Shown: piece by piece, positions 1,481-41,220 of the stretch | Layout of the letters: each line of letters starts with the position of its first letter | Numbering within the stretch: the first letter of the stretch is position 1 | NCBI RefSeq assembly: GCF_008298015.1 | Contig: NZ_VTPX01000019.1 | Coordinates: 1-62,141 of the forward strand | Length of the DNA: 62,141 bases | Reading direction: 5' to 3' | Origin: Salinicola corii | GTDB taxonomy: Bacteria; Pseudomonadota; Gammaproteobacteria; Pseudomonadales; Halomonadaceae | Made by a program: the position numbers and the translations under genes | The notes under the pieces: generated by a model | Databases searched by the model: none | What the model saw: only the letters and a program-made list of their open reading frames with translations | What the model was told of the DNA's origin: nothing

Positions 1481-1498
1481 AAAACTAGAGGTGTCCTA

Positions 1499-1744
1499 AT
1501 GGAAAATCTAATTTTTAGCCGCATTAAAGAGCTTCTCGTGGATAAATACTATGTTCCCGCAGAAAAAGTAACAGACAGTGTGGTATACGACGATCTTGGA
1601 TTAGATTCGCTGGTGCTACTGGAAATTTCAGTTACTCTCGAAAAAGAGTTTGGTCTTAAAATACCAGACGGGATTGTTTCATCTGAAATGGCTATTGAGT
1701 ATTCAGTTAAATCTATCCTTCGTAATAATGCGAATGTTACATGA
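1499..1744 (+). CDS. acyl carrier protein
   Basis: 81 residues, acidic and helical, the usual ACP size. The phosphopantetheine attachment site is Ser37 in the motif DDLGLDSLVLLE. The stop overlaps the start of the next gene (ATGA), which implies translational coupling. Its position right after KASIII suggests it carries the beta-ketoacyl intermediate of the cluster. A housekeeping acpP would normally sit between fabG and fabF, so this is a pathway-specific carrier. Confidence 0.92.
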   Translation: MENLIFSRIKELLVDKYYVPAEKVTDSVVYDDLGLDSLVLLEISVTLEKEFGLKIPDGIVSSEMAIEYSVKSILRNNANVT

Positions 1745-2313: not shown

Positions 2314-2321
2314 GGATATAC

Positions 2322-2600
2322 ATGAGTTTAAATATTGTTGTTTTCATTATACCTGAGGCGGGTTTTTTTAAAGAATTTGGTCGTAAGCTTGCTATTTTGA
2401 AAGAACTTACCATAAATGAAAATGGTTGTGAAATCTTCGATGTGTACATTTTCGAAAATAAATATGTTCTGATTGAGCGCTGGGCCGATCAGGCAGCTAT
2501 TGATGCTCATATGAGAGAAATATATACAGAGGAATTTATCAACCAGACGAAAGCACACCTTGAAGGAATAGAGGTTTACAGACTAGAAAGTACTCAGTAA
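2322..2600 (+). CDS. ABM-domain (YgiN-like) monooxygenase
   Basis: 92 residues with the antibiotic-biosynthesis-monooxygenase ferredoxin-like fold: an early strand LNIVVFIIPEAG, the central GCEIFDVYIFENKYVLIERW, and the closing HMREIYTEEF helix. The ATG at 2322 is chosen because GAGGA lies about 7 bp upstream; the in-frame GTG at 2310 is poorly placed and overlaps the previous stop. Such cofactor-free proteins oxidise polyketide-like intermediates or degrade quinones, and some are only ligand-binding. Within this cluster it is a candidate tailoring enzyme. Confidence 0.75.
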   Translation: MSLNIVVFIIPEAGFFKEFGRKLAILKELTINENGCEIFDVYIFENKYVLIERWADQAAIDAHMREIYTEEFINQTKAHLEGIEVYRLESTQ

Positions 2601-2619
2601 CCAGACTTAAGAGGTCGGT

Positions 2620-4080
2620 ATGGCGGAAGCCCGGTTTAACAGAATGGAAATACATGTTTTGCTGACAGTATGTCTGTCGATGTTTATTATTCCATTGACG
2701 ATTACATCTTCGAGCATTCTGAATCTTTCAATAATGAACGATTATTCTCTGAAATATCAGGAGGCTCAATGGTTCATTAATATATTTATGGTCATGTACG
2801 CCGCCTTTCTGCCAGTGACCGGATCTATATCTGATTATGTTGGTAAAAAGAATGTGTTTTTATTTGGCCTTGCACTTTTAGCGATGGGTTTCCTGCTGGG
2901 CGGGCTGGCTAACAATTATATGCTTCTACTAGCGTCCCGTGCCGTTAGCGGCATAGCTGCCGCAGCAGTAACCACGTCGGCAACGTCTCTTCTGGCATCG
3001 CACGTTGATAAAACAAAGAAAGCTCGTGCATTCTCAATCTTTGGCGTGTTTCTCGGCATTGGGATGATCAGCGGTCCGCTTATTGCCTCGGGGTTGAGCT
3101 ATATTGACCACGGGTGGCTAATCTTCAGTGCTGGGATGGCCTCGTTTTTATTTGTCATGTTAATTTCACTGGTTTTAATTTCCGCAAAAGCTCATCGTGC
3201 CAGCCATCCTTTTGACTGGGTCGGCGGGTTTCTATTAACGGTGTTTTTGCTTTCTTCCGTTATGGTGGTGTCATTCCTGCCGGTCTGGACATTCAACAAT
3301 CCCCGGACACTGAGCCTGCTGCTGGTATCAGTTCTGATCGGGTCTCTGCTTTATCGGGTTGAAAGAAAATCAGAGTATCCGTTGATTGACATTCGTATTT
3401 TCAGAAATCGTGACTTCTCAGCGATGAGCATCACGTCTTTACTTCTTGGATTTGGGTATATTAGTGTGCTATTTTATTTCCCGCTATATCTGAGTAAAGT
3501 GACGGAATTTTCAGCCTTGCAGATGGGCTCAATCATGACGGCTGCGACATTGCCATCTCTTGTTTTTCCGTCAATTATCGCGAAATTCAGGAGCAAGCTC
3601 AGTGATGCATTTTTGTTAAAGGTTACGCTTTTTTTTCTGATCTCTTCGCCGCTTTTTTTGTCAAAAATCACAGGAAGTGAAAGTGTTTTATTACATCAAA
3701 TAGCAATGTTTTTGTTTGGGGCTTCTTTCGGTATATCGCTGTCTTATATTGACGGGGTGGCCGTTAACTCCGTTCCTGCTCATCAGGCAGGATTGGCCGC
3801 GGGCACATTTAATACCTTCAGAATTGGCGGGGAATCTATTTTCATTCCTCTGACTTCTTCGGTTGCCACATTATTAAATACCACCTTGGGCGGCAAGGTG
3901 GAGCACACACTCAATATGGGTTATCGATTCATTGGTAATGCACATGAAAGTTTTATTACATCTACGTCACTGCTGCTAATAGTGGTATCGGTTTTATGTT
4001 TTATTTTTTCAGTAGTGATTCTGAATTTTTGTCGTCTCAATAAAAATCGAGATCAAGTTCATGAAATTTCACAAGAGTGA
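2620..4080 (+). CDS. MFS drug/metabolite exporter, 14-TM type
   Basis: 486 residues, about 14 hydrophobic segments, of the DHA2 (EmrB/QacA) class. A motif-A-like loop, GSISDYVGKK, lies at residues 68-77 between the second and third helices, and the following stretch ASRAVSGIAAAAVTTSA fits motif B/C. It sits in the inner membrane and exchanges protons for a drug-like substrate. In a biosynthetic cluster it is the likely exporter or self-resistance pump for the product. RBS GAGG precedes the ATG. Its 3' end overlaps the next gene by 20 bp. Confidence 0.88.
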   Translation: MAEARFNRMEIHVLLTVCLSMFIIPLTITSSSILNLSIMNDYSLKYQEAQWFINIFMVMYAAFLPVTGSISDYVGKKNVFLFGLALLAMGFLLGGLANNYMLLLASRAVSGIAAAAVTTSATSLLASHVDKTKKARAFSIFGVFLGIGMISGPLIASGLSYIDHGWLIFSAGMASFLFVMLISLVLISAKAHRASHPFDWVGGFLLTVFLLSSVMVVSFLPVWTFNNPRTLSLLLVSVLIGSLLYRVERKSEYPLIDIRIFRNRDFSAMSITSLLLGFGYISVLFYFPLYLSKVTEFSALQMGSIMTAATLPSLVFPSIIAKFRSKLSDAFLLKVTLFFLISSPLFLSKITGSESVLLHQIAMFLFGASFGISLSYIDGVAVNSVPAHQAGLAAGTFNTFRIGGESIFIPLTSSVATLLNTTLGGKVEHTLNMGYRFIGNAHESFITSTSLLLIVVSVLCFIFSVVILNFCRLNKNRDQVHEISQE

Positions 4081-5605
4081 GAATAGTGTATTAATCGTTG
4101 GTGGTGGCCCTGTGGGCATGCTAGCCGCATTGGAGTTATCTCTTTTTGGTATCAAGGCAAGAATTATTTCCAAGCATGAGCGTTACTCGCCGCATTCAAA
4201 AGCGACGATCATCTGGCCCCGGGTACTGGAGCTACTCTCTCGCACTGGTGTCTCTGAGGGCGTTATTAATTCCGGTCATTACTTTGATCAAATGAATTAT
4301 TACTCGAACAAGAAAATGATTGGTAACATCTGCTTTGATCGTCTAAAATACACCAACTATCGCTATGGTATTACGATCCCTCAGTGGAAAACTGAAGAAG
4401 TTCTGGAGAACCGACTTAATGAAGAAGGTATCCAGATTGAATATGGTTTCGAGTTCATTAACGGCCATAACAGCCATGATCAGGTTAATGTAACGCTACG
4501 TAATCCGGATGGGAAGGTTACTCACGAATCCTTTGCGTGGGTTATTGGTGCGGACGGCTACTCGAGTAAAGTTAGGGAATGTTTTGGTTTCACTTTTGAT
4601 GGCTTCCAGATGGAGACCAGGCTTGCAATTACCGATGCAGAGCTAGTCAGCGAATCCACCAGTCGTGAGGTAGGGTATTACCTGCACCGCAAAGGTAATA
4701 TGGTGCTGGCCCCGATAGGAGATGGCCTCTTCCGCGTCGGGGCAAGTGTGCCTGCTGACTACAAGGGTGAAATTAACCGTGAGTTTTTCGAAACGATTTT
4801 AAGAGACCGTGCTCCGGGTAAGAAATCATTGGGGCATATGAATTTCTGCGGAATTTTTAACGCCCATGTTCGTTCAGCGTCGTCTTACAGAAATGAAAAT
4901 GTCTTTCTTGTGGGCGATGCGGCTCATGCAATGAGCCCTTCTGGTGCACAGGGAATGAACTGTGGGTTTCAGGATGTGGTGAACCTCGGGTGGAAACTGG
5001 CCGGTGTCATTCTCGGGAAGTACAAACCATCGCTTCTCGATTCTTATTCAGAAGAGAGAGTCAATGGTGTTAATCGCACATCTAAACTTTCAACATTTCT
5101 GGCTAACGTCAGCCTATATGAAAATCGACAGGCAATATTTGCCAGAGACGTAGCATTCAGAATGGCATCCCGAACCGGGCTAGTGGATAAATTTCTTTCG
5201 CCGCGTATTGCTCAAATAGATATTCCCCACGGCGAGCTTCCTGAAGGTAAAAATTTACTGGAGCCAGGAAGACGTATTCCGCTTGAATGGCACAGAAATT
5301 TGCTGTCTCCGCATCTCAGCCTGACAAAATATACGATTCTTTTCTGGCCGGGTGATCATTATATCTATTCGGAATGGCTAGCCTATTTCGAGAAAGCTTC
5401 TGAAGCTGTAAAAGGTGCATGTCTTATTAATCTGAGCGGAAAGGTTCTCGGGCTGTTAAAGGGGCTTCTGCCCAGTGTATCTGTGTGCATTGTTGTTCGT
5501 CCGGATGGTTTTATTAGTGATTTAATTGATATAAATGGAGGTGGTTGTAACGAAGTGTTTGGTGTTCTGAATGGTATAATTGATCAAAGTCGTCCACGAG
5601 GATAA
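4061..5605 (+). CDS. FAD-dependent monooxygenase (aromatic hydroxylase type)
   Basis: 514 residues. It shows the three group-A flavin hydroxylase signatures: the dinucleotide-binding VGGGPVGMLAA at about 13-23, the DG motif in VIGADGYSS, and the GD motif in FLVGDAAHAMSPSGAQG near residue 285. The C-terminal part has the thioredoxin-like extension seen in PheA/TfdB/RdmE proteins. It uses NAD(P)H and O2 to hydroxylate an aromatic or polyketide-like substrate. The start overlaps the MFS gene by 20 bp. It is probably a tailoring oxidase of the cluster. Confidence 0.85.
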   Translation: MKFHKSENSVLIVGGGPVGMLAALELSLFGIKARIISKHERYSPHSKATIIWPRVLELLSRTGVSEGVINSGHYFDQMNYYSNKKMIGNICFDRLKYTNYRYGITIPQWKTEEVLENRLNEEGIQIEYGFEFINGHNSHDQVNVTLRNPDGKVTHESFAWVIGADGYSSKVRECFGFTFDGFQMETRLAITDAELVSESTSREVGYYLHRKGNMVLAPIGDGLFRVGASVPADYKGEINREFFETILRDRAPGKKSLGHMNFCGIFNAHVRSASSYRNENVFLVGDAAHAMSPSGAQGMNCGFQDVVNLGWKLAGVILGKYKPSLLDSYSEERVNGVNRTSKLSTFLANVSLYENRQAIFARDVAFRMASRTGLVDKFLSPRIAQIDIPHGELPEGKNLLEPGRRIPLEWHRNLLSPHLSLTKYTILFWPGDHYIYSEWLAYFEKASEAVKGACLINLSGKVLGLLKGLLPSVSVCIVVRPDGFISDLIDINGGGCNEVFGVLNGIIDQSRPRG

Positions 5606-5608
5606 ATT

Positions 5609-6154
5609 ATGAATAATTCACTTGTTCAGCTTAAAGATGTTAGTGATTTTACTCCGGAGGAGTTCAGTGTTTATGAAAAGTTTCCATCGAACCTGACTCG
5701 CAGCCTGCTTTTGACAAAGTGTTCAGCAGGCCCTCATTTGGCGTTGGGCGGTGCAATTACTCAGGGCTATCTCAATGATTATGAGCGTGAAATTATTGTG
5801 ATGCGCGTGGCAAAACTCGTGGATAGTGAGTTTGAACGCCTGATCCATTATCCATTAGCAATTAAAGCTGGGTTATCGGAACAGGAAATTAGTGATATCG
5901 AAAGCGGCAATTACGACGCGATGGAACCCTGCCGTCAGGCTATGGTTCACTACATAACCGAGTGTATTAACGATGGCAAAGCCTCGCCTGCTGCGTTTCG
6001 CAAGCTTAACGAATTCTATTCTCAGGGCGAGATCGCGGATGCAACACATTTGGCCGGGCACTGCTGGATGACCGCTATGTATCTTTCAAGTCTGGGTGTT
6101 CCCCTGGATGAACAGGAAACCTCATGGTCACGCCTTACTGAGCTAAACAACTGA
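5609..6154 (+). CDS. carboxymuconolactone decarboxylase/AhpD-like protein
   Basis: 181 residues, all-helical. The central block EIIVMRVAKLVDSEFERLIHY followed by AIKAGLSEQEI is the CMD-family core, with Glu and His in the E-x3-H arrangement. The CxxC pair that gives AhpD its peroxidase activity is absent, so a redox role by that mechanism is unlikely. It starts 3 bp after the monooxygenase stop and is presumably co-translated. Function in the pathway is unknown; lactone chemistry is possible but not shown. Confidence 0.7.
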   Translation: MNNSLVQLKDVSDFTPEEFSVYEKFPSNLTRSLLLTKCSAGPHLALGGAITQGYLNDYEREIIVMRVAKLVDSEFERLIHYPLAIKAGLSEQEISDIESGNYDAMEPCRQAMVHYITECINDGKASPAAFRKLNEFYSQGEIADATHLAGHCWMTAMYLSSLGVPLDEQETSWSRLTELNN

Positions 6155-6165
6155 GGAGATGACCC

Positions 6166-7140
6166 TTGATTTATTCTCACCTTGGTAATTCCGGCCTTGT
6201 TGTTTCGCGAATAGCGCTCGGATGCATGTCATTTGGAGAAGCATCCTTAGGGGCACACCTCTGGACTTTGGACTTTGAGAGTAGTAAAAAAATCATTGCT
6301 AAAGCGCTAGATTTGGGGGTTAATTTTTTTGACACAGCAAATATCTATTCATTGGGTTCGAGTGAAGAGATTTTGGGAGAATGCCTGAAACGACATGCAA
6401 GGCGTGATGATGTCGTGATTGCAACTAAGATCTATGAAAAGATGACTGACTCACCACAGTCAGGTGGGTTATCACGGAAGGAAATATTTTTCCAAGTTGA
6501 TCAGAGTTTAAAGCGGTTGCAAACAGACTATATTGACTTGTATATTGTTCATCGATGGGATCCGAATACGCCAATCGAAGAGACAATGTCAGCGCTCAAT
6601 GATTTGGTCCGCTATGGTAAGGTTCGCTATATAGGTGCTTCCTCAATGAAGGCCTGGCAGTTTATTAAGGCGCAAAACGTTGCGCGTAATAATGGCTGGA
6701 CACCGTTCATTAGTATGCAGAATCATTACAACCTCATTAATAGAGAAGACGAGCGTGAAATGCTTCCTTACTGCTTCTCTGAGGGGGTTGGCGTCACGCC
6801 TTGGAGTCCACTTGCCCGGGGAAGGCTTGCCAGAAACGTGGAAACAATCCGAACACAGTCAGACAAGGTACAGTCATGGCTGTATGAGTCGGCTAAGGCC
6901 AGCGATGCAAAAATCATTACCGCACTTAACGAAATAGCTAAAAACAAAGAATGCAAGCCTGCGCACATAGCGCTCGCATGGCTGCTGTCCCGTCCCGGTG
7001 TGACATCTCCTATCATCGGGGCAACCTCAGTCGGGCAGCTCGCCGAGAATATCAAGAGTGTTGAAATTGTGCTGGATGAACACGAGATAGTTGCTCTAGA
7101 AGAGTTCTATACTCCTCATTCTCAAGCTGAGCTACAGTAA
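6166..7140 (+). CDS. aldo/keto reductase
   Basis: 324 residues, (beta/alpha)8 NADPH-dependent reductase of the YghZ/Kv-beta-like group. The tetrad is visible: Asp and Tyr in FFDTANIYSLG, Lys in VVIATKIYE, His in LYIVHRWD. The C-terminal cofactor segment SPIIGATSVGQLAEN is intact. The start is TTG at 6166, chosen because GAGGAG lies at 7 bp spacing; no in-frame ATG is available nearby. It lies 11 bp after the previous gene and would reduce a carbonyl of the cluster product. Confidence 0.88.
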   Translation: MIYSHLGNSGLVVSRIALGCMSFGEASLGAHLWTLDFESSKKIIAKALDLGVNFFDTANIYSLGSSEEILGECLKRHARRDDVVIATKIYEKMTDSPQSGGLSRKEIFFQVDQSLKRLQTDYIDLYIVHRWDPNTPIEETMSALNDLVRYGKVRYIGASSMKAWQFIKAQNVARNNGWTPFISMQNHYNLINREDEREMLPYCFSEGVGVTPWSPLARGRLARNVETIRTQSDKVQSWLYESAKASDAKIITALNEIAKNKECKPAHIALAWLLSRPGVTSPIIGATSVGQLAENIKSVEIVLDEHEIVALEEFYTPHSQAELQ

Positions 7141-7155
7141 AATTAGGAAGGCAAT

Positions 7156-8115
7156 ATGACGGTTCAAAAACCGGTTAATTCAGGGTTTGATGCGTCCTCA
7201 ACAGCATCTGATGTGCTCAAGGGCTTAAATCTGGAGGGAAAAACTGCCTTTATTACGGGTGGGCACTCTGGTCTTGGGTTTGAAGCAACAAAGGCTCTCT
7301 CCGCTGCGGGAGTACATGTTGTTGTGGGAGCTAGAGATGTGAAATCAGCTGCCTGCAACCTCAGTGAGCTGGACAACATCACTATTCTCCCTCTGGACCT
7401 TTCTGACATTGCTTCCGTCAGGAGCGTGGCCGCGCTTGTTTCTGCCAACCGTTATCAGTTCGATTACGTGCTGTGCAATGCCGGTGTCATGGCATGTCCT
7501 GAGCGCAGAGTGGGGCCGTACTGGGAATCCCAGTTTGCAACTAACCACATAGGCCATTATGTGCTGGTAAACTCAATTTGGAATAATATCCGTTCTGGTG
7601 GAAGGGTTGTCTGCGTTTCGTCAGCAGGACACCATAACTCGCCTATCCGGTGGGATGATATCCAGTTCACCGTCGGATACGATAAATGGCTTGCATACGG
7701 TCAGTCTAAAACCGCAAATGTATTGTTTGCGCTTCAACTGGATAATTACGGTAAAGAGTGCGGTGTTCGTGCGTTTTCATTGCATCCAGGGAAAATTTTC
7801 ACTCCGTTGCAACGCCACCTGACTAATGAGGAAATGGTTGACGAAGGGTGGATGGATAAAGATGGAAACCCGATCGATCCGACCTTCAAATCTACTGCTC
7901 AGGGAGCAGCAACCGAAGTCTGGGCGGCTACCAGCCCTAAGCTGAATGGTCTCGGTGGGCTCTATTGCGAGGATTGCGATGTAACTGCACTCGCATCTGA
8001 GTATCCTGCCCCCTTCGTAGGTGTCTGCGAATATGCGGTTGACCCAGAGGAGGCGATTAAATTGTGGAAATTCACGGCTAGTCTGACAGGGATTAATGTC
8101 TTTTCTGATAAATAA
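7156..8115 (+). CDS. short-chain dehydrogenase/reductase
   Basis: 319 residues of the retinol-dehydrogenase-like SDR group. Signatures are TGGHSGLGFEA for NAD(P) binding, the structural LCNAGVM, Ser in CVSSAGHH, and the catalytic YGQSK. It is the last gene of the AT-rich cluster, with AGGAAG upstream of the ATG. Together with the aldo/keto reductase it gives the pathway two carbonyl-reducing steps. No strong terminator follows; the composition changes from AT-rich to GC-rich over the next 200 bp. Confidence 0.88.
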   Translation: MTVQKPVNSGFDASSTASDVLKGLNLEGKTAFITGGHSGLGFEATKALSAAGVHVVVGARDVKSAACNLSELDNITILPLDLSDIASVRSVAALVSANRYQFDYVLCNAGVMACPERRVGPYWESQFATNHIGHYVLVNSIWNNIRSGGRVVCVSSAGHHNSPIRWDDIQFTVGYDKWLAYGQSKTANVLFALQLDNYGKECGVRAFSLHPGKIFTPLQRHLTNEEMVDEGWMDKDGNPIDPTFKSTAQGAATEVWAATSPKLNGLGGLYCEDCDVTALASEYPAPFVGVCEYAVDPEEAIKLWKFTASLTGINVFSDK

Positions 8116-30981: not shown

Positions 30982-33735
30982 CTAGGAGGGCTTGCCTGCA
31001 GCGTCGGCGATAGCCGGATCCTCGAGCAGATCCTGCAGCGTCCTGATGGCGGTTTCGCTGTCGCTCTCCATCACCCCGTCGAGCCAGATCATCGCCTGTT
31101 GCTGGTTGACGAACTCCACGCCTCGCGCCTGGAGGTAGGCCTGAGCCAGCGACACGCGGGCGGACCGATGCCCCTGCCGTGCGGCCTCGACCAGCAGTTT
31201 GGCGCCCTTGTGTGGATCGCGCGGCAGCACGTCGCCACTGAGATAGGCTCGGCCAAGGGCCGCTTCGGCGCCGGCATGGCTGCTTTCGGCGGCGGCGGTC
31301 AGCAGGCGTTCGCCGCGATTCACGTCCTGGGCGATGCCACCTTGCCCCTCCAGATAGGCCGTACCGAGTGAAGCCTGAGCGGAGGCGTTGCCGTTGTCGA
31401 CCGCGCGAGAAAGCCACTCGACGGCCCGCGTCGGGTCCTGATCGACGCCTTTGCCCTCGAGATAGGCCTGTCCCAGCAGACGCTGGGCATTGTCGTCGCC
31501 GCGCTGTGCCGCTCGCTCCAGGTAGCGCACGCCTTTGGCGGGGTCGGCGGCGACACCGGTGCCGTTGAGGTAGGCTTCGCCCAGCGTCACGCCGGCGGAG
31601 CCGTGGCCGGCATTGGCGGCCCGAGCCAACAGCCTGACGCCGCGCTGCGGATCGGCCGCTACGCCGTCGCCGCGCAGCAGCAGCTCGCCGAGATCCGCCT
31701 CGGCCCCCACGTGGCCGGCGGCGACCGCGCGTTCGAAGTAGCCGGCGGCGCGCGCCTTGTCGACCCCGACGCCCAGTCCGTCGGCATACAGACGACCGAG
31801 CGAGGCGGTGGCACCGGGATGGCCTTCCTCGGCGGCGCGTGACAGCCATTTCCTGGCGCTGGCGTAATCGACTCGCACGCCCCGTCCACCGAGATAGGCC
31901 CGGCCCAGGTCCGCCATGGCCGGCACTTGCCCCATCCGCGCCGCACGGATCAGGTCGTCGATATTGCCCTGCTCACCGCTGGCACGATAGGTGCGCGCCA
32001 GTGCCTGCTGGGCGGAAGGGTGGCCGGCGCGAGCGGCGCGCTGGAGCCAGCGTTCCGCGTGATCGAGGTCGGGCGGAACGCCGACCCCGTCGCGATAGGC
32101 CCTGCCGAGTACGACCATCGCGTAGGCATCGCCCTGGTTGGCGGCTTGCTTGAGCAGCTTGACGCCTTGCCGGGCATTGCCGGATAGCTTGCCCTCGAGC
32201 ATGCCCCGGCCGAGCCGGGTCTTGGCGGTGGTGTCGTCGGGGTCCTGCTCGATGGCTCGGCCCAGCCACTGCCGAGCCTTGGCAGGATTGTGCTGAAGTC
32301 CTTTCCCGTCCAGGTAGGCGATCCCCAGGGTGCGTGCGGCACCGCCCTGGTTCTGGTCGGCCGCCTCGGTCAGTAGCGAGACGCCGCGCACCGGATCGGC
32401 CGGTATGCCCTCGCCTTGGAGATAGGCTTGGCCTAGGCGCGCCGTGGCGTAGGGGTGGCCCAGTTCGTGGGCGCGTTCGAGATAGTCGACGCCCTGTCCC
32501 GGTTGGGCCTGGACCTTGTCGCCGTCGAGATAGGCGCTGCCCAGCAGCGCCAGCGCATAGGCGTCGTCCTGCTGCGCCGCCCGTGTCAGCAATCGAATGC
32601 CGTGTTGGGGGTTCTCCGCCAGCACATCGCCCGTCAGGTAGGCCTGGCCCAGGGTGCGGGCGGCATCGGGCTGGCCGCGGCCGACGGCGTCCGCAAGCCA
32701 CTTTTCGGCCAGCTCCGGGTCGGGTTCGACCCGACCCTCGCCGAGGTAGGCTTGCCCCAGCCAGTAGGCGGCATCCTCATTGCCGGACTCCGCGGCACGT
32801 CGGAGCATCTCGAGCCCGCTGGCGGGATCCCGCTGCGTCACCAGCAGGTGACCGGCGGCCGCCAGCGCCTGGGGATCGCCGCTGTCGGCGGCCCGGCTCA
32901 GCCACTGCCGCTGGCGTGTCGGTTGGGGAAGCAGGCCGTCCTCGGCATAGAGACGCGACAGCGCCAGCATCGCGCCGACATCGTCGCTCTCGGCACGGGG
33001 CGTCATCGCCTGGGCGTAGCGTTCGGCGTAGGCGCGGGCCTGGCCCGGATCATTGCCGAAAGCGCCGCCGGGCGAGTAGTTCTCGGCCAGCGTCTGGAGG
33101 GCGCGGGGCTCGTTCTGCGCCGCTGCCTTCTCTAGCTGCGCGCGGGCGGCGTCGATGTCCTTCGGCACCCCCTCGCCGGAGAGCTGCATCTCGGCGAGTT
33201 CGATGCGCGCGCCGGGGTTGCCGTCGTGATCCACGGCCTGCTGAAACAGGTTCCACGCCAGTGCCGGGTCGCGCTTGACGCCGTCGCCGGTGCGATAGAG
33301 TCGACCCAGCTTCAACGAGGCATTGTCGAGGCCGCTGAACGCGTAGGGAACCGCCCGGCGATAGTATTGGGCGGCGAGGGAGGGATCGGGAGGAACGCCC
33401 TCGCCGTCGTCATAGATTCTGGCCAGTTCGTAGCTGGCCTCGGGATGCGTCCGCGCCATTGGCTCGAGCAGTTCGATGGCCTCGAGGCTCTGTCCCTGGG
33501 TTTCGAGGCTGCGGATGTACTCCACCCGATTCCAGTCGGTGGAGGGCATCGATTCGATGTAGCGGTGCGCGAACAGCTCGCGGTCCTGGGCTGCGATCGG
33601 TTGGGTCTGGGCGGGTTGCTGGCTCGCGCAAGCGGTCAGCAGCACCACCGATGCCAGTCCCAGCATGAAGCGGCTGCCGGAGAAGCGCCGCGTCTTGGAA
33701 AGGAAATGCATGGCGTCGGGCGTCGGTATCGTCAT
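30982..33735 (-). CDS. SEL1/TPR-like repeat lipoprotein (AlgK-like, giant)
   Basis: 917 residues. A lipoprotein signal with lipobox LLTACAS near residue 35, then about twenty-one SEL1 repeats of about 36 residues with the pattern A..LG.AYL.G.GV..D...A..WL.RAA..G. AlgK of the alginate system is a SEL1-type outer-membrane lipoprotein of roughly half this size that organises the export complex; this protein is last in the Alg8/Alg44 operon, so a similar scaffold role is inferred. ATG at 33735 has AAGGAG upstream. Confidence 0.8.
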   Translation of the reverse strand: MTIPTPDAMHFLSKTRRFSGSRFMLGLASVVLLTACASQQPAQTQPIAAQDRELFAHRYIESMPSTDWNRVEYIRSLETQGQSLEAIELLEPMARTHPEASYELARIYDDGEGVPPDPSLAAQYYRRAVPYAFSGLDNASLKLGRLYRTGDGVKRDPALAWNLFQQAVDHDGNPGARIELAEMQLSGEGVPKDIDAARAQLEKAAAQNEPRALQTLAENYSPGGAFGNDPGQARAYAERYAQAMTPRAESDDVGAMLALSRLYAEDGLLPQPTRQRQWLSRAADSGDPQALAAAGHLLVTQRDPASGLEMLRRAAESGNEDAAYWLGQAYLGEGRVEPDPELAEKWLADAVGRGQPDAARTLGQAYLTGDVLAENPQHGIRLLTRAAQQDDAYALALLGSAYLDGDKVQAQPGQGVDYLERAHELGHPYATARLGQAYLQGEGIPADPVRGVSLLTEAADQNQGGAARTLGIAYLDGKGLQHNPAKARQWLGRAIEQDPDDTTAKTRLGRGMLEGKLSGNARQGVKLLKQAANQGDAYAMVVLGRAYRDGVGVPPDLDHAERWLQRAARAGHPSAQQALARTYRASGEQGNIDDLIRAARMGQVPAMADLGRAYLGGRGVRVDYASARKWLSRAAEEGHPGATASLGRLYADGLGVGVDKARAAGYFERAVAAGHVGAEADLGELLLRGDGVAADPQRGVRLLARAANAGHGSAGVTLGEAYLNGTGVAADPAKGVRYLERAAQRGDDNAQRLLGQAYLEGKGVDQDPTRAVEWLSRAVDNGNASAQASLGTAYLEGQGGIAQDVNRGERLLTAAAESSHAGAEAALGRAYLSGDVLPRDPHKGAKLLVEAARQGHRSARVSLAQAYLQARGVEFVNQQQAMIWLDGVMESDSETAIRTLQDLLEDPAIADAAGKPS

Positions 33736-33839
33736 GTGCTTGTCTCCTTCTGGTCCGGCCTTCGTCCCTGAAGCGGGCCAGGAATGGTCATGGGTCGAGT
33801 CCGGAGCTCGAATACGGATGTCGGGGATTGACGGCGGCG

Positions 33840-35132
33840 TCAGGTGTCGGGCTCGAAGGCGGCGAGTTCCGTTCTTTCGGGTTCCGGCAGTGCGCGGGGC
33901 TGGGCCTGCGGGTCCATGAAATAGAAGGTGACGTAGCCGCCGGCACTGCGGTTGTCGACGGGCCGCTTCTGGCTGACGTAGTGGGCGACTCGGTCGTCAT
34001 CGCGATGACTGAGATAGATCTCCATCCAGGCGAGATACTGCTCGTCGTCGAGGAATCCGTAGTACTGGGCGTGGGTCGCCAGATCCCCTAGCGCCGCCGG
34101 ATCGTCGAACGTGTCCAGGGCAAACTGGACCGCGTCGTCGAGGGTGTGGCCGCGGTACTCGAAGTCGAACAGGTCGTAACCCTGGCGGTAGGCCACCTGC
34201 ATGATGTTGACCAGATAGAGCAGGGCGTAATTCTGGTAGTGGCTGGCGCGGCGGCCGCGAGCCATCTCGTGGGGCAGGGCGCCACGGGGCGTCAGGTCGT
34301 TGAGTGCCGAGTAGATCGCGCTGATGCCGAACTGGAACAGCTCATCGTCGTCCGTCAGCACGCCGATCATGCTGGCGTAGAGCGCCCGGCGGTAGAAGTG
34401 GTTGTTGCAGCAGCTCGGCTCCCCGCCTTTGATGGCGGAGTGCTTGTGGGCCAGCGCGTTGAGCCAGTGATTGATACGCTCGATCGCCTCCTGGTGCTTG
34501 TCCGCGACGACCGGACGCACGATCGAATAGGCCATCGCCGCGGCAAACATCATCGACTCCGTCGAGTACCAGCCCTGGGGCTCGAGACGGTCATAGTGGA
34601 ACTGGCTCAAGGCGTCGTGAGTCGCCCACTTGTCCAGAAACCGGACCAGGCAGTCGGCGTAGTAGTCGTCGCCGGAGGCCACGTAGGCCCCGGCCAGGTT
34701 GGAGACGGTGTCCTCGAAATCGAACAGCGGCTCGGAGGCCAACTCCCACGCCTTGGGCTGCGGGTAGTAGCCGGGAATCCGGATCACGCTGTCCAGCGTC
34801 GGCTTGGAGAGTTCCTGACGACAGCTGGGACCGTGCATCAATTGATCCCGGTTGTACTGCAGCAGATCGTTATCGGTGTGCTTCAGCAGCGCCATTCGGG
34901 CCTGAACGTCGAAATAGGAGGCATCCGGATCGGTGACCGTGTATTTCGACAGATCCAGCTTCTGACGCTCGGCGTAGCTCATCGTCCGACTCGCCTGGCC
35001 TGCCTGGGCGGGTTTGTCTGGCGTCGCTTCGGCCGCTTGCGTCGACGGCGGCAGACCGATAGCCGTCAGACCCAGCAGCAGGACGAAGCCGTGGCGCAGA
35101 CCGAAGCGGCCTGCGATTGAGATCCGGTTCAT
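33840..35132 (-). CDS. alginate lyase (AlgL/PL5-like) family protein, periplasmic
   Basis: 430 residues. A signal peptide (GFVLLLGLTAIGLPPSTQA) then an alpha-toroid domain. Family landmarks are CNNHFYRRALYASMIGV (compare NNHSYW of AlgL) and LPHEMARGRRASHYQNYALL (compare LPNELKRRQRALAYHNYAL), supplying the Asn/His/Arg/Tyr catalytic set. In alginate makers AlgL clears stray polymer from the periplasm. PL5 relatives such as Smlt1473 also cut polyglucuronate. Here it sits between the PL14-like lyase and the SEL1 gene, so it probably edits or clears the operon's own polymer. Confidence 0.82.
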   Translation of the reverse strand: MNRISIAGRFGLRHGFVLLLGLTAIGLPPSTQAAEATPDKPAQAGQASRTMSYAERQKLDLSKYTVTDPDASYFDVQARMALLKHTDNDLLQYNRDQLMHGPSCRQELSKPTLDSVIRIPGYYPQPKAWELASEPLFDFEDTVSNLAGAYVASGDDYYADCLVRFLDKWATHDALSQFHYDRLEPQGWYSTESMMFAAAMAYSIVRPVVADKHQEAIERINHWLNALAHKHSAIKGGEPSCCNNHFYRRALYASMIGVLTDDDELFQFGISAIYSALNDLTPRGALPHEMARGRRASHYQNYALLYLVNIMQVAYRQGYDLFDFEYRGHTLDDAVQFALDTFDDPAALGDLATHAQYYGFLDDEQYLAWMEIYLSHRDDDRVAHYVSQKRPVDNRSAGGYVTFYFMDPQAQPRALPEPERTELAAFEPDT

Positions 35133-35160
35133 GGAAGTCGACTCCCTGTAGAAGGATCGA

Positions 35161-36063
35161 TCACGCCTTGGGGGTCATCAGCGTGAAGTCGGCAAAATCG
35201 ACGGTCTGGTTCCTTGGCGTGCGCCAATCGCTGCCATGGCCGCCGAAGAAGGTCGAGAACATCAGCCCGTCGATGTGCACGTCATCCGTGGTGCGATAGA
35301 CGATGCCTTGCTGCTCGAGTGTCGGTTGGCCATCGATCCAGACACGTGCAACACCGTTCTGGCGATCGGGGTCGTTCAGCACGATCTCCTGTTCCACGGT
35401 GACCCACTGGCCTGGCGTGAAGTGCCACAGGCCGCGGCCCACCGATTCGCCGTAGTCGGCGTCCTTGTTGACGATGTATTCGTAGAGTTCGCCCTGACCC
35501 TGCTTGCGCCACATGAAGCGCATCGAGAAGCCGTTCTTGCCGGTGACCTCGTCGCCGCCGGTGGGGCCGTCGCCCCCGTAAAGCCCCGGCAGCTTGCCGC
35601 CCTTGACGAAAGCGAAGCCGGTTGGGAAGCGAACCCGATAGCGCAGGCAGGCCCGGTCGGCCTGGCGCAGCGCGGGGACTGGCATCACGAAACCGGCGCC
35701 GCCCTCTTCGGCATCGCTGGGCGAGGAGGTGCCGGCGGGGTAGTGGACGCGCAGGGCGGATGAGTCCAGCCCGCTGTCGGCGCGATCCAGGACCTGCAGG
35801 TTCTGCTCGCCCCAGCGACGCTGGCCACCCAGGCCGTCCGCGACCCACGTTTTCGGGTCGGCCTTGGCCCCTGCATCCAGGGCCAGGGTCCGTACCGGTG
35901 CGTAACGCGATGAACAGGCACCGACCTGCGGTTTGGCGAGCGCATCGTCGCTGGCCGCCAGGGCGGGCAGCGAGGTCAGCGTCAGCGCGCCGGCGGTCAG
36001 AATGGCTGCGCTCAACGGGGTCGTCAGACGGCGTTGGAGGTCTTCGAGTCTGGACAGAATCAT
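35161..36063 (-). CDS. polysaccharide lyase, PL14-like, secreted
   Basis: 300 residues. A signal peptide (about 1-35, ending LTSLPALAAS) then a beta-jelly-roll. The motifs FVKGGKLPGLYGGD, GFSMRFMWRKQGQGELYEY and GQWVTVEQEIVLND are those of PL14-like lyases, whose members cleave alginate or beta-1,4-glucuronate. ATG at 36063 follows AAGGAGACGAAC; the longer frame upstream overlaps the alg44-like 3' end. A secreted lyase inside a synthesis operon suggests length control or release of polymer. Confidence 0.75.
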   Translation of the reverse strand: MILSRLEDLQRRLTTPLSAAILTAGALTLTSLPALAASDDALAKPQVGACSSRYAPVRTLALDAGAKADPKTWVADGLGGQRRWGEQNLQVLDRADSGLDSSALRVHYPAGTSSPSDAEEGGAGFVMPVPALRQADRACLRYRVRFPTGFAFVKGGKLPGLYGGDGPTGGDEVTGKNGFSMRFMWRKQGQGELYEYIVNKDADYGESVGRGLWHFTPGQWVTVEQEIVLNDPDRQNGVARVWIDGQPTLEQQGIVYRTTDDVHIDGLMFSTFFGGHGSDWRTPRNQTVDFADFTLMTPKA

Positions 36064-36145
36064 GTTCGTCTCCTTGGGCGATGGGTGCCTTGCGATAGGT
36101 ATCGCGTCGGATCGGTGGCGGTGGCATGACCGATTTGCCATGCGA

Positions 36146-37597
36146 TCAGTTCATCGCGCTCTTCAGGCCCTGGGTCATGCCGTCGGCGGCGCGTCCCCAG
36201 AGCGACTGCACTCCCTGGAACATCGCCCGGCCGGCCTGATAGCTCCATTCGGCGGCGGTATCGAGCATCGGCGCCTCGGTGAAGCGCACGTCGACCGGCG
36301 TACCGACCGCACTGGCCGGTAGCGGCGCCTCCGGCACCAGCAGCACGCTGGCCACGTTCTGCTGCTGCCGGACCCAGTCCGGAAAACCGGCGCGAGGTTG
36401 GCGCTCGACGTCGAGCGCCACGCTGCGCACGCGAGCGGGAATGGGCTCCGACGCGTTGGGCAGGGCGATGTAGGCCTGCTGGTGATTCTCGATATCGCCG
36501 ATGTCGTCCATGTGCACCAGCGCCTCGACCATGACGTCGTTGTCGTGGGTGCTGACCAGGGTCATGACGCGGTCGCCCTCGTTGACGTAGGTGCCACCGG
36601 CGGCGCTCAGCGCCCAGGCGACCTCACAGTCACACGGGCTGTAGATGGTGTTGGCCGAGACCCGCGCCTTGTAGGCGTCGATGCGCGAGCTTTCGTAGTC
36701 GCGTGCGGTCTCGAACTGTTCGACACGGGTCCTGGCGATTGCCGGTGGCAGGGTTTCGTAGCCCAGCTCGCCGCCCGACGGATTGGACGAGGTGGCGACG
36801 CTGACCTTGCTGTTGCCGGCGTTATCGAGACTCTGCTGCAGGTTTTCGATCAGTCGCTCGTTGTAGTCGAACGAGGCCTGGGAGAGCAGCAGATCGTTCT
36901 GCAGTTCGGCGTTGTCGACGTCGATCAACGGCTGATCACGCTCGACCCTGTCGCCGGCCTTGAGATCGAGATCCTTCAACTGGCCGGCACCGGGCGCCAG
37001 AATGTCCGTGCGCGGCGCGGTCACCGCAGCGAAACTGGGCTCGATCAGAAAGACGTTGCGATAGACCGTGGCGGCGACGGTGACCATCAGGACGCCCGCC
37101 GCGACCAGCAGTGCCAGATAGCGGAACATGGGAACGCGGCGCTTCGGCTTGGTGGCCGGCGTCGCCACGTTGCCCTGTCGTTTGCGGGGCGTCTGGGAAT
37201 CCTGCTGATCGACCAGGCCGTCGAGGCTGACGTGGCGTCCGCTCATCTGGGCGCGAATCACCCGACGCAGGATGTCGCGCTGGCGGGGTTCCATCTGCGT
37301 GAACTCGAAGGCGATGCACTGTCGACGACCCTCGCCCATCTCGCGCCGCGGACGCGCCATGGCGGGAAGCGCGAATTCGATGCCGCTGGCGGCCAGCATC
37401 AGCGCGACGGGAATCTCGCGGTCGCGCTCGAAATGCATCGAGGTCTCGGCGGAAAAGCCTCCCAGCGAGAGGTCATGACCCTTGACCACATGACCATCGC
37501 CCAGACGTACGTGAAAGGGCATGGCGACCCGCACGTGGCGGCGTTCGTCGCGGCGCTCGTGGCGCAACTGATCCGGATCCTGGTGGTGATCTGTCAT
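36146..37597 (-). CDS. Alg44-like c-di-GMP receptor and membrane-fusion protein
   Basis: 483 residues. A cytoplasmic PilZ domain at the N-terminus, with RxxxR at Arg19-Arg23 and D42-L-S44-L-G-G47 (DxSxxG), the two c-di-GMP-binding signatures. One membrane helix (FRYLALLVAAGVLMVTVAAT) follows near 158-178, then a periplasmic HlyD/biotinyl-lipoyl-like region (ILAPGAGQLKDLDLKAGDRV). This is the Alg44 layout, about 90 residues longer than the Pseudomonas protein. It would couple c-di-GMP to polymerisation by the adjacent glycosyltransferase. Confidence 0.88.
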   Translation of the reverse strand: MTDHHQDPDQLRHERRDERRHVRVAMPFHVRLGDGHVVKGHDLSLGGFSAETSMHFERDREIPVALMLAASGIEFALPAMARPRREMGEGRRQCIAFEFTQMEPRQRDILRRVIRAQMSGRHVSLDGLVDQQDSQTPRKRQGNVATPATKPKRRVPMFRYLALLVAAGVLMVTVAATVYRNVFLIEPSFAAVTAPRTDILAPGAGQLKDLDLKAGDRVERDQPLIDVDNAELQNDLLLSQASFDYNERLIENLQQSLDNAGNSKVSVATSSNPSGGELGYETLPPAIARTRVEQFETARDYESSRIDAYKARVSANTIYSPCDCEVAWALSAAGGTYVNEGDRVMTLVSTHDNDVMVEALVHMDDIGDIENHQQAYIALPNASEPIPARVRSVALDVERQPRAGFPDWVRQQQNVASVLLVPEAPLPASAVGTPVDVRFTEAPMLDTAAEWSYQAGRAMFQGVQSLWGRAADGMTQGLKSAMN

Positions 37598-37624
37598 GCA
37601 TGAGTCTCCTTGTAAATCCCTGGT

Positions 37625-39577
37625 TTACTGGCGGTTCTGGGCCAGTACCTTGTCTTCTCCGCGGCGTTCGTCCAGCGACAGCGACAGCTCCGTCAAACGG
37701 ATATCTTGTCCGCCGATCCGGAGTCGGCAGGGGCGCGGTTCGTTGCACTGCAACCGTCCGGCGCTGGCGAGCGTGGTATCGCCTGAAGTGATCTGAGCGG
37801 ACAGGCCTGGGTCGATCTGCAGGACGCTCGGGTGGTCGGGATCGTCATGACCGTGGATGTCGGTGCCTCGGATTCTGTCCAGTGAAGCGACGGCGGCGTT
37901 GAAACCGCCATCGATTCGAAAGTGCCCCGGCGGCAGCTGCACGCTGCCATCCTGCGGCACATCGGCGAGCGCCAGTGCCAGCCAGCGGTTGTCGTCGGCG
38001 TCGGTCGATGCCGGCCTGGCCCCAACCATCGCCGCGACCGAGAGACGATCTGCCGGTGCCATGACGCCGCCGAAGACGGCCAGTGCGAATACCAGCGCGC
38101 CGAAGTAGAGGGTGTGGATGAGATGGCCGCCGAGGCGCTGATGGCGCGCGGCGCGTGGATCGTCGGGCTCGCCCGCCGAAATGCCCTGGCGCGACCAACG
38201 CTGTCGATTGAAGCGGAAGCTGACGTAGGTCTTGAGAACCGCCCCGCTGAGCTGGTTGTAGTAGAGCATCGGCACCCATAGCGCGCTCCAGCGGCCCCGC
38301 TGCCAGGCCAGCACCAGACTGGTCAGTCCGCGGGTCATCACAATCCAGAGCAGGTAGGCGAAGATGAATGAGGGGCGCACGAACAGCGTCAGCAGGATGG
38401 CGATGGTCGGGCCGATCAGCGTGGTCCACATCGATAGCCGCTGATCGACCAGGCTCCACCAGGTGAACCACCCCATCCGACTCGGCCCCAGGGCGATGGC
38501 CCGGCCGTTGGTGCGCAGCATGTTGCCGAACCAGCGACGCATCAGGTCCTGCGTCGATTTGAAGAAGCGCCGGCGATCCGGCAGCTCCTCGAAACCGGTG
38601 ACATGGACGTCGGGCAGGTAGAGCATCTTCCAGCGATGCTTGAGCAGCCAGAACCAGGTCGACTTGTCGTCTCCGGAGAGAAACTTGAAGTTGCCGAAGC
38701 GCCAGTGCTCGACGTGATCGTTCTCGACCAGTTCGATGAACTCCGGCTCGGTGGCGAGGTCGGCACGAAACGCGCTGTAGCGACCGGTCAGCACTAGCAG
38801 TCGTTCGGAGACCGCGGTCGAGCTCATCACCAGATGACGCTGGGCGTAGCGCAGGTCGTACCACTCCTTGGTCATGTCGTTGCCGATGACGACGGCGCTG
38901 TTGTTGGTGGTGATCGCCCCCAGGTCTTCCCGGGCCAGGAAGAACGACAGCGAGCGTTCCAGCGTCCCCGGTTCGATGCGGATGTCGCCGTCCATGCTGA
39001 CCAGCAACGAGCGGGGCGTCGGCATGCAGCGAGAGATGGCCCGCAAGACTTCGGCCATGGCCGAGCGTTTGCCGTCGCCTTTCTGGAACATGTAGCGAAC
39101 GCTGACATTGGCGGGCCAGCCATGCTCGTCCATGACCTGGTCGATGATGTCGACGTCGCTGCGGTCGGCGATGGCGGCGAACAGCGTGGTCGGCACACCG
39201 TAGTCGGCCGCATCCCGGATCAGCGCGTCATAGACGGCGAAAGTCACTTCGGTATCGATCCGAAACGATGTGCACAGGATATAGAGGGCGTCCGGGGTTT
39301 CGTTGGCACCGACGGCATCGGCCTCCGCCCGTAGCCGTGGAAACATGCGGCGGTTGTACCAGACCGACCGGATCGCCTGGACGAACCACCACGAGTAGCG
39401 CCAGGCGCCGATCAAGCCCACGGCGAAGAGGAAGCTCTTCGACCCGGGATGGAAGACCTCGTCCGGCAGATGCGTTACCAGCAGCAGGACCAGCGTGGCG
39501 AGCAGCAGCATGACCGTGGCTTCGGTCGCCACCGATGCCTTGCTGGGTCTGGCTCGGGTGTAGTGGATGTGGCTCAT
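37625..39577 (-). CDS. Alg8-like processive glycosyltransferase with C-terminal extension
   Basis: 650 residues. A GT2 synthase embedded in the inner membrane: N-terminal helices (about 20-70), catalytic loop with SMDGDIRIEPG (Asp196/Asp198), LSGDD at 300-304 and the TQDLMRRW motif near 342-349, then more helices to about 525. This matches Alg8 (494 residues) up to there. The last 125 or so residues are extra and contain VQLPPGHFRIDGGF, reminiscent of the first turn of beta-helix carbohydrate enzymes. ATG at 39577 has AGGGGA upstream. It polymerises a nucleotide-activated uronic acid; the donor is discussed under ugd. Confidence 0.88.
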   Translation of the reverse strand: MSHIHYTRARPSKASVATEATVMLLLATLVLLLVTHLPDEVFHPGSKSFLFAVGLIGAWRYSWWFVQAIRSVWYNRRMFPRLRAEADAVGANETPDALYILCTSFRIDTEVTFAVYDALIRDAADYGVPTTLFAAIADRSDVDIIDQVMDEHGWPANVSVRYMFQKGDGKRSAMAEVLRAISRCMPTPRSLLVSMDGDIRIEPGTLERSLSFFLAREDLGAITTNNSAVVIGNDMTKEWYDLRYAQRHLVMSSTAVSERLLVLTGRYSAFRADLATEPEFIELVENDHVEHWRFGNFKFLSGDDKSTWFWLLKHRWKMLYLPDVHVTGFEELPDRRRFFKSTQDLMRRWFGNMLRTNGRAIALGPSRMGWFTWWSLVDQRLSMWTTLIGPTIAILLTLFVRPSFIFAYLLWIVMTRGLTSLVLAWQRGRWSALWVPMLYYNQLSGAVLKTYVSFRFNRQRWSRQGISAGEPDDPRAARHQRLGGHLIHTLYFGALVFALAVFGGVMAPADRLSVAAMVGARPASTDADDNRWLALALADVPQDGSVQLPPGHFRIDGGFNAAVASLDRIRGTDIHGHDDPDHPSVLQIDPGLSAQITSGDTTLASAGRLQCNEPRPCRLRIGGQDIRLTELSLSLDERRGEDKVLAQNRQ

Positions 39578-39736
39578 CGGGTTGTCCCCTGGAGTCGTTC
39601 CTGGGTTGCGTTCCTCGACCCGAGTCCTTGCGTCAGGCGCGCAGACACGAAGTCCCCCTGATCGATGCCGTGGCACCGATCGGGAACGTCATGAGAGTCG
39701 AGGGGGCGGCGACGTCAGCCGCCGACGGGGCGGTTA

Positions 39737-41149
39737 TCAGAGTGTGTAGGCGACGCTCGGGCTCGTTCGCTCGGCCGGTGATGCCGCTGCGGTAGCGACG
39801 GCGACAGGCTGGGCGATGAGCAGCGAGTCGGCACGACCCACCGCGAAATAGAGCAGGCCGGCGGCGCGCACGCTCTCGGGATCGAACAGGTTGCGTCCGT
39901 CGATGATCACCGGGGTGGTGAGCCGCTCCCGCAGGCGGCGGAAGTCGACCGTGCGGAAGGCCTTCCATTCGGTGCAGATCACCAGGGCGTCGGCGCCCTC
40001 CAGGGTGTCGTCCCGGCGCTTGGTCAGTGCCAGGTCGTCGCGTTCGCCGTAAATACGTCGGCACTCATCCATGGCCTCGGGATCGTGGGCGCGAACCTTG
40101 CCGCCGGCGGCCCAGACCGCCTCCATCAGTTTGCGGCTCGGGGCTTCGCGCATGTCGTCGGTATTGGGCTTGAAGGCCAGCCCCCATATGGCGATGGTCT
40201 TGCCCTGCAGTTCCCCATCGAGCGCCTGGGAAAGCTTGGTGAACAGGTGGGTCTTCTGACGGTTGTTGACCGATTCGACCGCGTCGAGCAGTTCGGCCTC
40301 GTAGCCGACATCGCTGGCGGTGCGCGCCAATGCCTGCACGTCCTTCGGGAAACACGAGCCGCCATAGCCACAGCCTGGATAAATGAAGCTGTAGCCGATG
40401 CGCGGATCGCTGCCGATGCCCCGGCGCACGTTCTCGATGTCCGCACCGAGCCGTTCCGCCAGATTCGAGATCTCGTTCATGAAGCTGATCTTTGTCGCCA
40501 GCATGGCGTTGGCAGCGTACTTGGTCAGCTCGGCGCTGCGGATGTCCATGAACATCAGCTTTTCCTGACGCCGGTTGTAGGGCGCGTAGCACTCGCGCAT
40601 CAGCGGCTCCACGCGGGGGGAGTCGCAGCCGACCACGATGCGTGCACCCTGGGAGAAATCCTCCACGGCCGAGCCCTCCTTGAGAAACTCCGGGTTCGAG
40701 CAGACGTCGAAGGGAATATCCACGTCGCGTTGCCGCAGCCGCCGGGCAATGGTCCCCGACACGCGGTCCGCCGTACCGACCGGTACCGTGGACTTGTCGA
40801 TCACCAGCTTGTACGCCTGCATGTGGGTGGCAATGGTGTCGGCCACGTTGAGCACGTATCTGAGATCGGCGCTACCGTCCTCGTCCGGCGGCGTGCCGAC
40901 GGCGATGAACTGCAGCGTCCCGAAATTGACCGCCTCGACCGGGTCGGTGGTGAACAGCAGCCGTTGGTCCGCCACGTTCTGCTTGATCAACGCCTCCAGG
41001 CCCGGTTCGTAGATCGGTACGACGCCGTTCTTCAGGCCGTTGATCTTGTCCTGATCCACGTCCATGCACATGACTTCATGCCCGGCATCGGCGAGGCACG
41101 TCCCGGTGACCAGGCCGACATAGCCCGTTCCAAAAATGGTGATCCGCAT
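39737..41149 (-). CDS. ugd: UDP-glucose 6-dehydrogenase
   Basis: 470 residues. NAD-binding [10 protein letters not shown] at residues 7-16, the sugar-nucleotide features [25 protein letters not shown] and [14 protein letters not shown], and the catalytic Cys266 in [12 protein letters not shown]. These match UDP-glucose dehydrogenases; AlgD (GDP-mannose) proteins differ in these blocks. It makes UDP-glucuronate. As first gene of the operon it probably supplies the donor sugar for the Alg8-like synthase. ATG at 41149 has AAGGAG. The last 25 residues are a loose Ala/Ser-rich tail. Confidence 0.92.
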
Positions 41150-41204: not shown

Positions 41205-41220
41205 GGCATTCACTGCGCCA
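41205..41220 (-). promoter_or_regulatory. possible sigma-54 promoter for the polysaccharide operon
   Basis: On the minus strand TGGCGCAGTGAATGCC has the GG-N10-GC spacing of a -24/-12 element, with two departures from the TGGCAC-N5-TTGC consensus. It lies about 56 bp upstream of the ugd start. Weak evidence on its own. Confidence 0.25.

What the first reader, a model, noticed from the sequence alone, without database searches (positions are those of the whole stretch)
30982..41149. Alginate-type synthase operon rewired to UDP-glucuronate: candidate c-di-GMP-controlled polyglucuronate system
Seen: one minus-strand operon ugd, alg8-like, alg44-like (PilZ with RxxxR and DxSxxG), PL14-like lyase, PL5/AlgL-like lyase, giant SEL1 lipoprotein. 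Known: in alginate, Alg8 uses GDP-mannuronate from AlgD, and algE, algG, algX, algI/J/F are in the same operon. Here AlgD is replaced by a UDP-glucose dehydrogenase, and the epimerase, acetylation genes and porin are absent. PL14 and PL5 families both include enzymes active on beta-1,4-glucuronate. Inference: the polymer is a glucuronan-like chain made from UDP-GlcA, un-epimerised and trimmed by its own lyases. I know of no described system with this exact gene set.
Basis: partly seen in the sequence, partly recalled or inferred. Interest (0 to 1): 0.9.

Follow-up and report, generated by a model that had tools for sequence, protein, structure and literature searches.

The report
Bacterial polyglucuronate synthase operon (predicted)
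A salt-loving bacterium carries a conserved six-gene operon that looks like the machine for making alginate but is paired with a supply of a different sugar acid, so it probably makes polyglucuronate, a polymer whose bacterial genes were reported as unknown.

Summary
In detail: ugd, alg8-like, PilZ-HlyD (alg44-like), PL14, PL5 and Sel1-lipoprotein genes lie at 41149-30982, minus strand, of a Salinicola contig. The set is common: 72 of 80 named relatives of the synthase carry all six genes; 52 of 151 sampled family genomes carry the synthase. The UDP-glucuronate reading passed the available tests. The genome has no GDP-mannose dehydrogenase. Across 138 typed Alg8-family loci, residue 259 is Asn in 85 and Glu in 53. 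A UDP-glucose dehydrogenase is nearby in 74 of the 85 and a GDP-mannose one in none; in the 53 the numbers are 0 and 40. A non-orthologous UDP-glucose dehydrogenase in two alphaproteobacteria, and galU in another locus, point the same way. MBOAT and ALGX families are absent genome-wide. The only AlgE-family porin gene is unlinked, and only 2 of 52 carriers have one, so the outer-membrane exit is unknown. Best explanation: a c-di-GMP-gated glucuronan system, sister to alginate. Neither product nor donor is shown. A 2023 paper calls glucuronan biosynthesis genes unknown, so this is directly testable.

The parts
39737..41149 (-). ugd: UDP-glucose 6-dehydrogenase, donor supply (ORF opens at 41209; natural start probably 41149)
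   Evidence: 2y0e 547 bits, GMD 1mfz 196 bits; dehydrogenase tree
37625..39577 (-). Alg8-family processive GT2 synthase, N259 type (numbered in the 683-aa ORF that opens at 39676; start probably 39577), with an extra C-terminal beta-rich domain
36146..37597 (-). PilZ - membrane helix - HlyD protein, Alg44-like co-polymerase and predicted c-di-GMP receptor
   Evidence: motif in 77 of 80; tblastn finds its counterpart after alg8 in some Pseudomonas-type loci at only 51-70 bits
35161..36141 (-). PL14 polysaccharide lyase; start perhaps 36063, which opens with a signal-like segment (by eye)
   Evidence: GGK[LIM][PA]G in 75 of 76, F[ST]xRxxW in 73 of 76, YxY in 76 of 76
33840..35132 (-). PL5 (AlgL-superfamily) polyuronate lyase, A1-III-like
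   Evidence: NNH in 78 of 78 and H[YF]QN[YF] in 77 of 78
30982..33735 (-). 917-aa Sel1-repeat lipoprotein, AlgK-like periplasmic scaffold (inferred)
   Evidence: AlgK model NF038194 149 bits, below its cut-off of 700; lipobox-like motif in 59 of 68 relatives examined

Best explanation
The operon encodes a synthase-dependent, c-di-GMP-gated system for a beta-1,4-linked polyglucuronate (glucuronan). Ugd oxidises UDP-glucose to UDP-glucuronate. [quoted passage not shown] The operon holds no epimerase or acetylation gene, so the chain is probably plain. Two periplasmic lyases (PL14, PL5) clear or trim it, and a Sel1 lipoprotein scaffolds its passage. Shown here: gene content, conservation, dehydrogenase type, no GDP-mannose dehydrogenase found, co-segregation of synthase residues with dehydrogenase type, fold class, conserved motifs. 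Inferred: donor identity, linkage, homopolymer, c-di-GMP binding, roles of lyases and lipoprotein, location of the product.
For: Dehydrogenase is UDP-glucose type by bit score and tree (branch of length 3.41, support 100/100, to the GDP-mannose type). No GDP-mannose dehydrogenase in the genome. Of 85 distinct N259-type loci 74 have a UDP-glucose dehydrogenase nearby (72 of them within the full six-gene set) and 0 a GDP-mannose one; of 53 E259-type loci 0 and 40. GMP genes 0 of 88 against 20 of 53, MBOAT 0 against 19 (before duplicates were removed). Residue 295 is V or C in 85 of 85 and T in 53 of 53. Caenispirillum and Thalassobaculum carry alg8-alg44-pl14-pl5-sel1 with a non-orthologous UDP-glucose dehydrogenase in another operon position. 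One unnamed locus (L144) has GalU directly upstream. Smlt1473, a lyase recalled to be PL5, cleaves poly-GlcA (PMC8511899, passages). The predicted fold is close to hyaluronan synthase, UDP-GlcA-bound states included. [quoted passage not shown]
Confidence: 0.7

Rival explanations
1. The synthase makes a GlcA-containing heteropolymer (for instance alternating GlcA and HexNAc, hyaluronan-like) rather than a homopolymer.
For: The 13 best Foldseek matches are hyaluronan synthases; Smlt1473 also cleaves hyaluronan at pH 5 (PMC8511899, passages).
Against: Sequence places it in the Alg8 family, whose known member makes a homopolymer of one uronic acid; no hit to any PDB chain by sequence at E up to 10, hyaluronan synthases included; no HexNAc-specific gene in the operon.
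Confidence: 0.12
2. It is an alginate (mannuronan) system that takes GDP-mannuronate from elsewhere, ugd serving another pathway.
For: GDP-mannose can be made (GMP_PMI); databases name relatives Alg8 or mannuronan synthase (PMC4523562, passages); a mannosyltransferase heads the VIA list.
Against: No GDP-mannose dehydrogenase in the genome; 0 of 85 N259-type loci have one nearby; a second ugd stands in the Wzy-type cluster; no MBOAT or ALGX match.
Confidence: 0.04
3. The polymer is polygalacturonate, iduronate-containing or another UDP-GlcA derivative, or a neutral glucan made from UDP-glucose.
For: UDP-GlcA can be epimerised, and galU is linked in one locus.
Against: No epimerase in the operon; two uronate-lyase genes in the operon; no BcsB in the genome.
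Confidence: 0.1

Closest known systems
Alginate biosynthesis system of Pseudomonas and Azotobacter (algD-8-44-K-E-G-X-L-I-J-F-A, order recalled)
   Same: Alg8-family synthase, PilZ-HlyD Alg44-type partner, PL5 lyase, Sel1/TPR lipoprotein, dehydrogenase gene next to alg8.
   Different: UDP-glucose instead of GDP-mannose dehydrogenase; an extra PL14 lyase; no AlgE, AlgG, AlgX, AlgI/J/F in the operon; different residues at 259 and 295, mostly also 277, 293, 197.
Bacterial glucuronan producers (Sinorhizobium meliloti M5N1CS, Peteryoungia rosettiformans)
   Same: Predicted product class, beta-1,4-polyglucuronate.
   Different: Their glucuronan is O-acetylated and the genes were stated to be unknown in 2023 (PMC10180729, passages); no named genome of theirs was examined here.
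Hyaluronan synthase (Chlorella virus HAS, Xenopus HAS1)
Pseudomonas acidic polysaccharide (Pap) of P. ogarae F113
   Same: Contains a UDP-glucose dehydrogenase (PapA).
   Different: Wzx/Wzy-type assembly on a lipid carrier, no Alg8/Alg44 among its listed genes (PMC7716237, passages).

Membership tests
Alginate biosynthesis system | GDP-mannose 6-dehydrogenase (AlgD) supplying GDP-mannuronate | tested here: not met
   PF00984 search of the genome: 3 genes, two UDP-glucose type and one degenerate copy on the UDP-glucose side
Alginate biosynthesis system | Alg8-family GT2 synthase | tested here: met
   The profile of its relatives finds the synthases that stand beside AlgD-type genes in the order at 432-508 bits
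Alginate biosynthesis system | Alg44: PilZ - one TM - periplasmic membrane-fusion domain | tested here: met
   Pfam PilZ and HlyD_3 in that order; motif 77 of 80; c-di-GMP binding itself not testable
Alginate biosynthesis system | AlgE outer-membrane porin in the system | tested here: not met
   None in the operon; PF13372 gene unlinked on C17 and matched in only 2 of 52 carriers at E up to 1e-5
Alginate biosynthesis system | Acetylation machinery AlgI (MBOAT), AlgJ/AlgX (ALGX) | tested here: not met
   No match in the genome at E up to 1; control genomes ring over cut-off in 3 of 14 for MBOAT but 0 of 14 for ALGX, so the ALGX search has no positive control; AlgF not searched
Alginate biosynthesis system | AlgG C5-epimerase | tested here: inconclusive
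   No hit at 60 bits or more in any of the 88 N-type loci with one query, which rang in only 6 of 53 E-type loci; whole genome not searched
Alginate biosynthesis system | AlgK lipoprotein | tested here: inconclusive
   NF038194 149 bits, below the 700 cut-off; Sel1 repeats are generic
Synthase-dependent c-di-GMP-controlled exopolysaccharide systems | Inner-membrane processive GT2 with a c-di-GMP receptor, a repeat scaffold and a degrading enzyme | tested here: met
   By sequence and predicted fold: (activity and ligand binding not testable)
Synthase-dependent c-di-GMP-controlled exopolysaccharide systems | Dedicated outer-membrane porin | tested here: inconclusive
   None in the operon; no plausible recurring co-directional flank gene among the 25 largest clusters, no gene caller used; no BcsS match; porins of other families not searched
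UDP-glucose 6-dehydrogenase | Clade and best solved relatives are UDP-glucose dehydrogenases | tested here: met
PL5 and PL14 lyases | Pfam domain over cut-off with conserved motifs | tested here: met
   (catalytic role of these residues recalled)
Hyaluronan synthase | Two-donor synthesis of GlcA-GlcNAc | not testable with these tools
   Fold similarity only
Bacterial cellulose system | BcsB co-catalytic subunit | tested here: not met
   PF03170 without a match in the genome; control rings in E. coli

The most novel reading that the evidence does not exclude
The operon is the founding member of a polyglucuronate machine that keeps its product inside the cell envelope: with no outer-membrane porin found and two co-located lyases, it would fill the periplasm of salt-adapted bacteria with c-di-GMP-regulated oligo- or polyglucuronate, a charged counterpart of the osmoregulated periplasmic glucans, rather than exporting a matrix polymer.
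Probability: 0.15. Interest if true: 0.85.

Novelty: new variant of a known kind. Interest (0 to 1): 0.76.

Why it matters
A 2023 paper on bacterial glucuronan states that the genes and loci for its biosynthesis remain unknown (PMC10180729, passages). This gives a concrete, widely conserved candidate gene set in culturable Halomonas, Salinicola and Billgrantia species. It also offers a natural test of donor and sugar choice in the Alg8 family, because residues 259 and 295 switch with the dehydrogenase type in every typed locus that has one nearby, and 277, 293 and 197 in most. It warns that 'Alg8', 'mannuronan synthase' and 'alginate lyase' labels in these halophiles are probably wrong.
Full report
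What is there. The window lies on contig C10 of a 4.66 Mb, 30-contig genome listed as 100 % complete. Its nearest named relatives are Salinicola; in the nearest locus (L009) the synthase is 97 % identical. Reading the minus strand from 41149 down to 30982 there are six genes with gaps of 159, 27, 4, 28 and 104 bases: ugd, an Alg8-like GT2, a PilZ-HlyD protein, a PL14 lyase, a PL5 lyase and a 917-aa Sel1 lipoprotein.

It is a conserved unit. One pattern scan of the species-genome collection found 392 relatives of the synthase, of which the best 80 were kept. tblastn with the six window proteins finds all six in 72 of the 80 loci. The order is the window's except in Caenispirillum (L016) and Thalassobaculum (L076), where the dehydrogenase gene sits between alg44 and pl14. 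Of the other eight, three are cut by contig ends (L024, L028, L068); L066 has 10 kb upstream of the synthase without ugd and a contig end just after it; four are alg8-alg44-(pl14)-pl5 sets of alphaproteobacteria (L073, L075, L077, L080). In a sample of 151 genomes of the window's family 52 have the synthase, and within its genus 10 of 18. Some strains carry two operons (Onishia niordana L044 and L059, Halomonas salinarum L050 and L061). In the flanks of 71 halomonad loci, purA stands convergently downstream in 54; among the 25 largest clusters of flanking frames I saw no plausible further co-directional gene, but no gene caller was used.

Which sugar nucleotide. The window dehydrogenase scores 547 bits to UDP-glucose dehydrogenase 2y0e and 196 bits to GDP-mannose dehydrogenase 1mfz. 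For comparison, the dehydrogenase next to alg8 in a Pseudomonas-type locus (L117) scores 823 bits to 1mfz and 216 to 2y0e. In a tree of 42 dehydrogenases (a subset of the 107 collected) the two types are separated by a branch of length 3.41 with support 100/100. The genome holds three genes of the family: the window's ugd; a close paralogue on C27 that stands, with a GMP_PMI gene, at the end of a glycosyltransferase/Wzy-type cluster (named by eye); and a diverged copy on C24 beside a galU-like gene, without the usual GGSCFPKD motif and on a branch of length 4.27. There is no GDP-mannose dehydrogenase, so GDP-mannuronate cannot be made by the known route. ALGX and MBOAT families give no match.

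Synthase and dehydrogenase travel together. Relatives were collected from the order (35 of 390 genomes), the phylum (23 of 398) and the family of G485 (23 of 297; I take it to be rhizobial because its locus pairs with a Rhizobium plasmid locus), with named plasmid loci. In the quick Alg8 tree of 67 of the 118 sequences, all loci with a UDP-glucose dehydrogenase lie on one side of a branch, together with eight lacking a nearby dehydrogenase (SH-aLRT 95), and those with a GDP-mannose one on the other, with three lacking one (seven labels corrected). Comparing 74 UDP-linked with 28 GDP-linked synthases gave 19 differing columns. Extended to 138 typed loci (L187 was too short; three loci taken as duplicates by equal contig length or place were removed), residue 259 is Asn in 85 and Glu in 53. 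Of the 85, 74 have a UDP-glucose dehydrogenase nearby (72 in the six-gene set, L028 cut before sel1, and L127 where it is about 4 kb away beyond other genes), none a GDP-mannose one, 11 neither. Of the 53, 40 have a GDP-mannose one, none a UDP-glucose one, 13 neither, of which 11 are stretches of 12 kb or less. Residue 295 is Val or Cys in all 85 and Thr in all 53; 277, 293 and 197 differ in most but not all. Before removal of duplicates GMP genes were found in 0 of 88 and 20 of 53, MBOAT in 0 and 19, PL14 in 78 and 0 (many E-type stretches are only about 4.5 kb, which lowers their counts). The 24 new loci had not been used to choose the residues: by alignment 22 are E-type, 12 of them with a GDP-mannose dehydrogenase and none with a UDP-glucose one; one is N-type (L170, fetched wider as L190) with neither; L187 is unreadable. 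These loci are related by descent, so the counts overstate independence. The separate events seen are: a ugd of the 2y0e kind (BceC, name recalled) in Halomonadaceae; a ugd of another kind in Caenispirillum (best 4a7p, 489 bits; GDP-mannose type 175 bits) and Thalassobaculum (joined with it at 98/90; a UDP-glucose dehydrogenase model leads); and galU (TIGR01099, 338 bits, over cut-off) directly upstream of alg8-alg44-pl5 in L144. The four-gene tree makes Caenispirillum sister to the halomonads (90/99), so the same machine is found with two non-orthologous UDP-glucose dehydrogenases.

What is missing. No outer-membrane exit was found. The Alginate_exp gene on C17 lies among unrelated genes, and of 52 synthase carriers only two have a PF13372 match. 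BcsS gave no match. Porins of other families were not searched. The Sel1 lipoprotein may scaffold an unknown porin, or the product may stay in the envelope; this is the most novel reading left open.

Prior knowledge. Eight word searches of the open-licence paper library and one for Pap listed no title or abstract start describing this gene set as a polyglucuronate system. PMC10180729 (2023, passages) states that genes and loci for glucuronan biosynthesis remain unknown. PMC4523562 (2015, passages) lists 'alginate biosynthesis protein Alg8' and 'alginate lyase precursor' in Halomonas smyrnensis AAD6, whose locus is L074 here, without further interpretation. Subscription papers and preprints were not searched.

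Verdict. A real, conserved and probably mislabelled operon; UDP-glucuronate as donor is likely (about 0.9), a glucuronan homopolymer probable (about 0.7). It works like the alginate system but fails that system's tests for AlgD, AlgE and the acetylation families, so it should not be filed as alginate.

Noticed in passing
[not shown]
   Followed up: partly
G000:C24:346185-349463 (L083): A diverged UDP-glucose-dehydrogenase-like gene beside a galU-like gene, with GGPNFSRD where active enzymes have GGSCFPKD; possibly a non-catalytic paralogue.
   Followed up: partly
G000:C27:226000-237728 (L161): A second EPS cluster of apparent Wzx/Wzy type (named by eye) with its own ugd and a GMP_PMI gene.
   Followed up: partly
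L029, L033, L039, L040: In several Billgrantia strains a second pl14-pl5 pair follows the Sel1 gene; six other loci (L007, L010, L011, L012, L071, L078) have an extra pl5.
   Followed up: no
L190 (G930:C42): Locus with GGDEF-EAL, a small BcsS-like protein (20 bits, below cut-off), alg8, an alg44-position protein without a Pfam match, and pl5 in a row.
   Followed up: partly
L118 and L121 (G377, G191): Two genomes of family f21 carry a second GDP-mannose-type alg8 cluster with MBOAT and GMP genes besides the usual one.
   Followed up: no
L127, L146, L147: N259-type synthases outside the operon context: L127 has an HlyD protein gene (PilZ below cut-off) just upstream; L146 and L147 have an efflux-type outer-membrane lipoprotein gene nearby, named by eye.
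   Followed up: no
window 476-8115: A run of plus-strand genes resembling a small secondary-metabolite cluster (ketoacyl synthase III, MFS transporter, FAD monooxygenase, aldo-keto reductase; named by eye).
   Followed up: no
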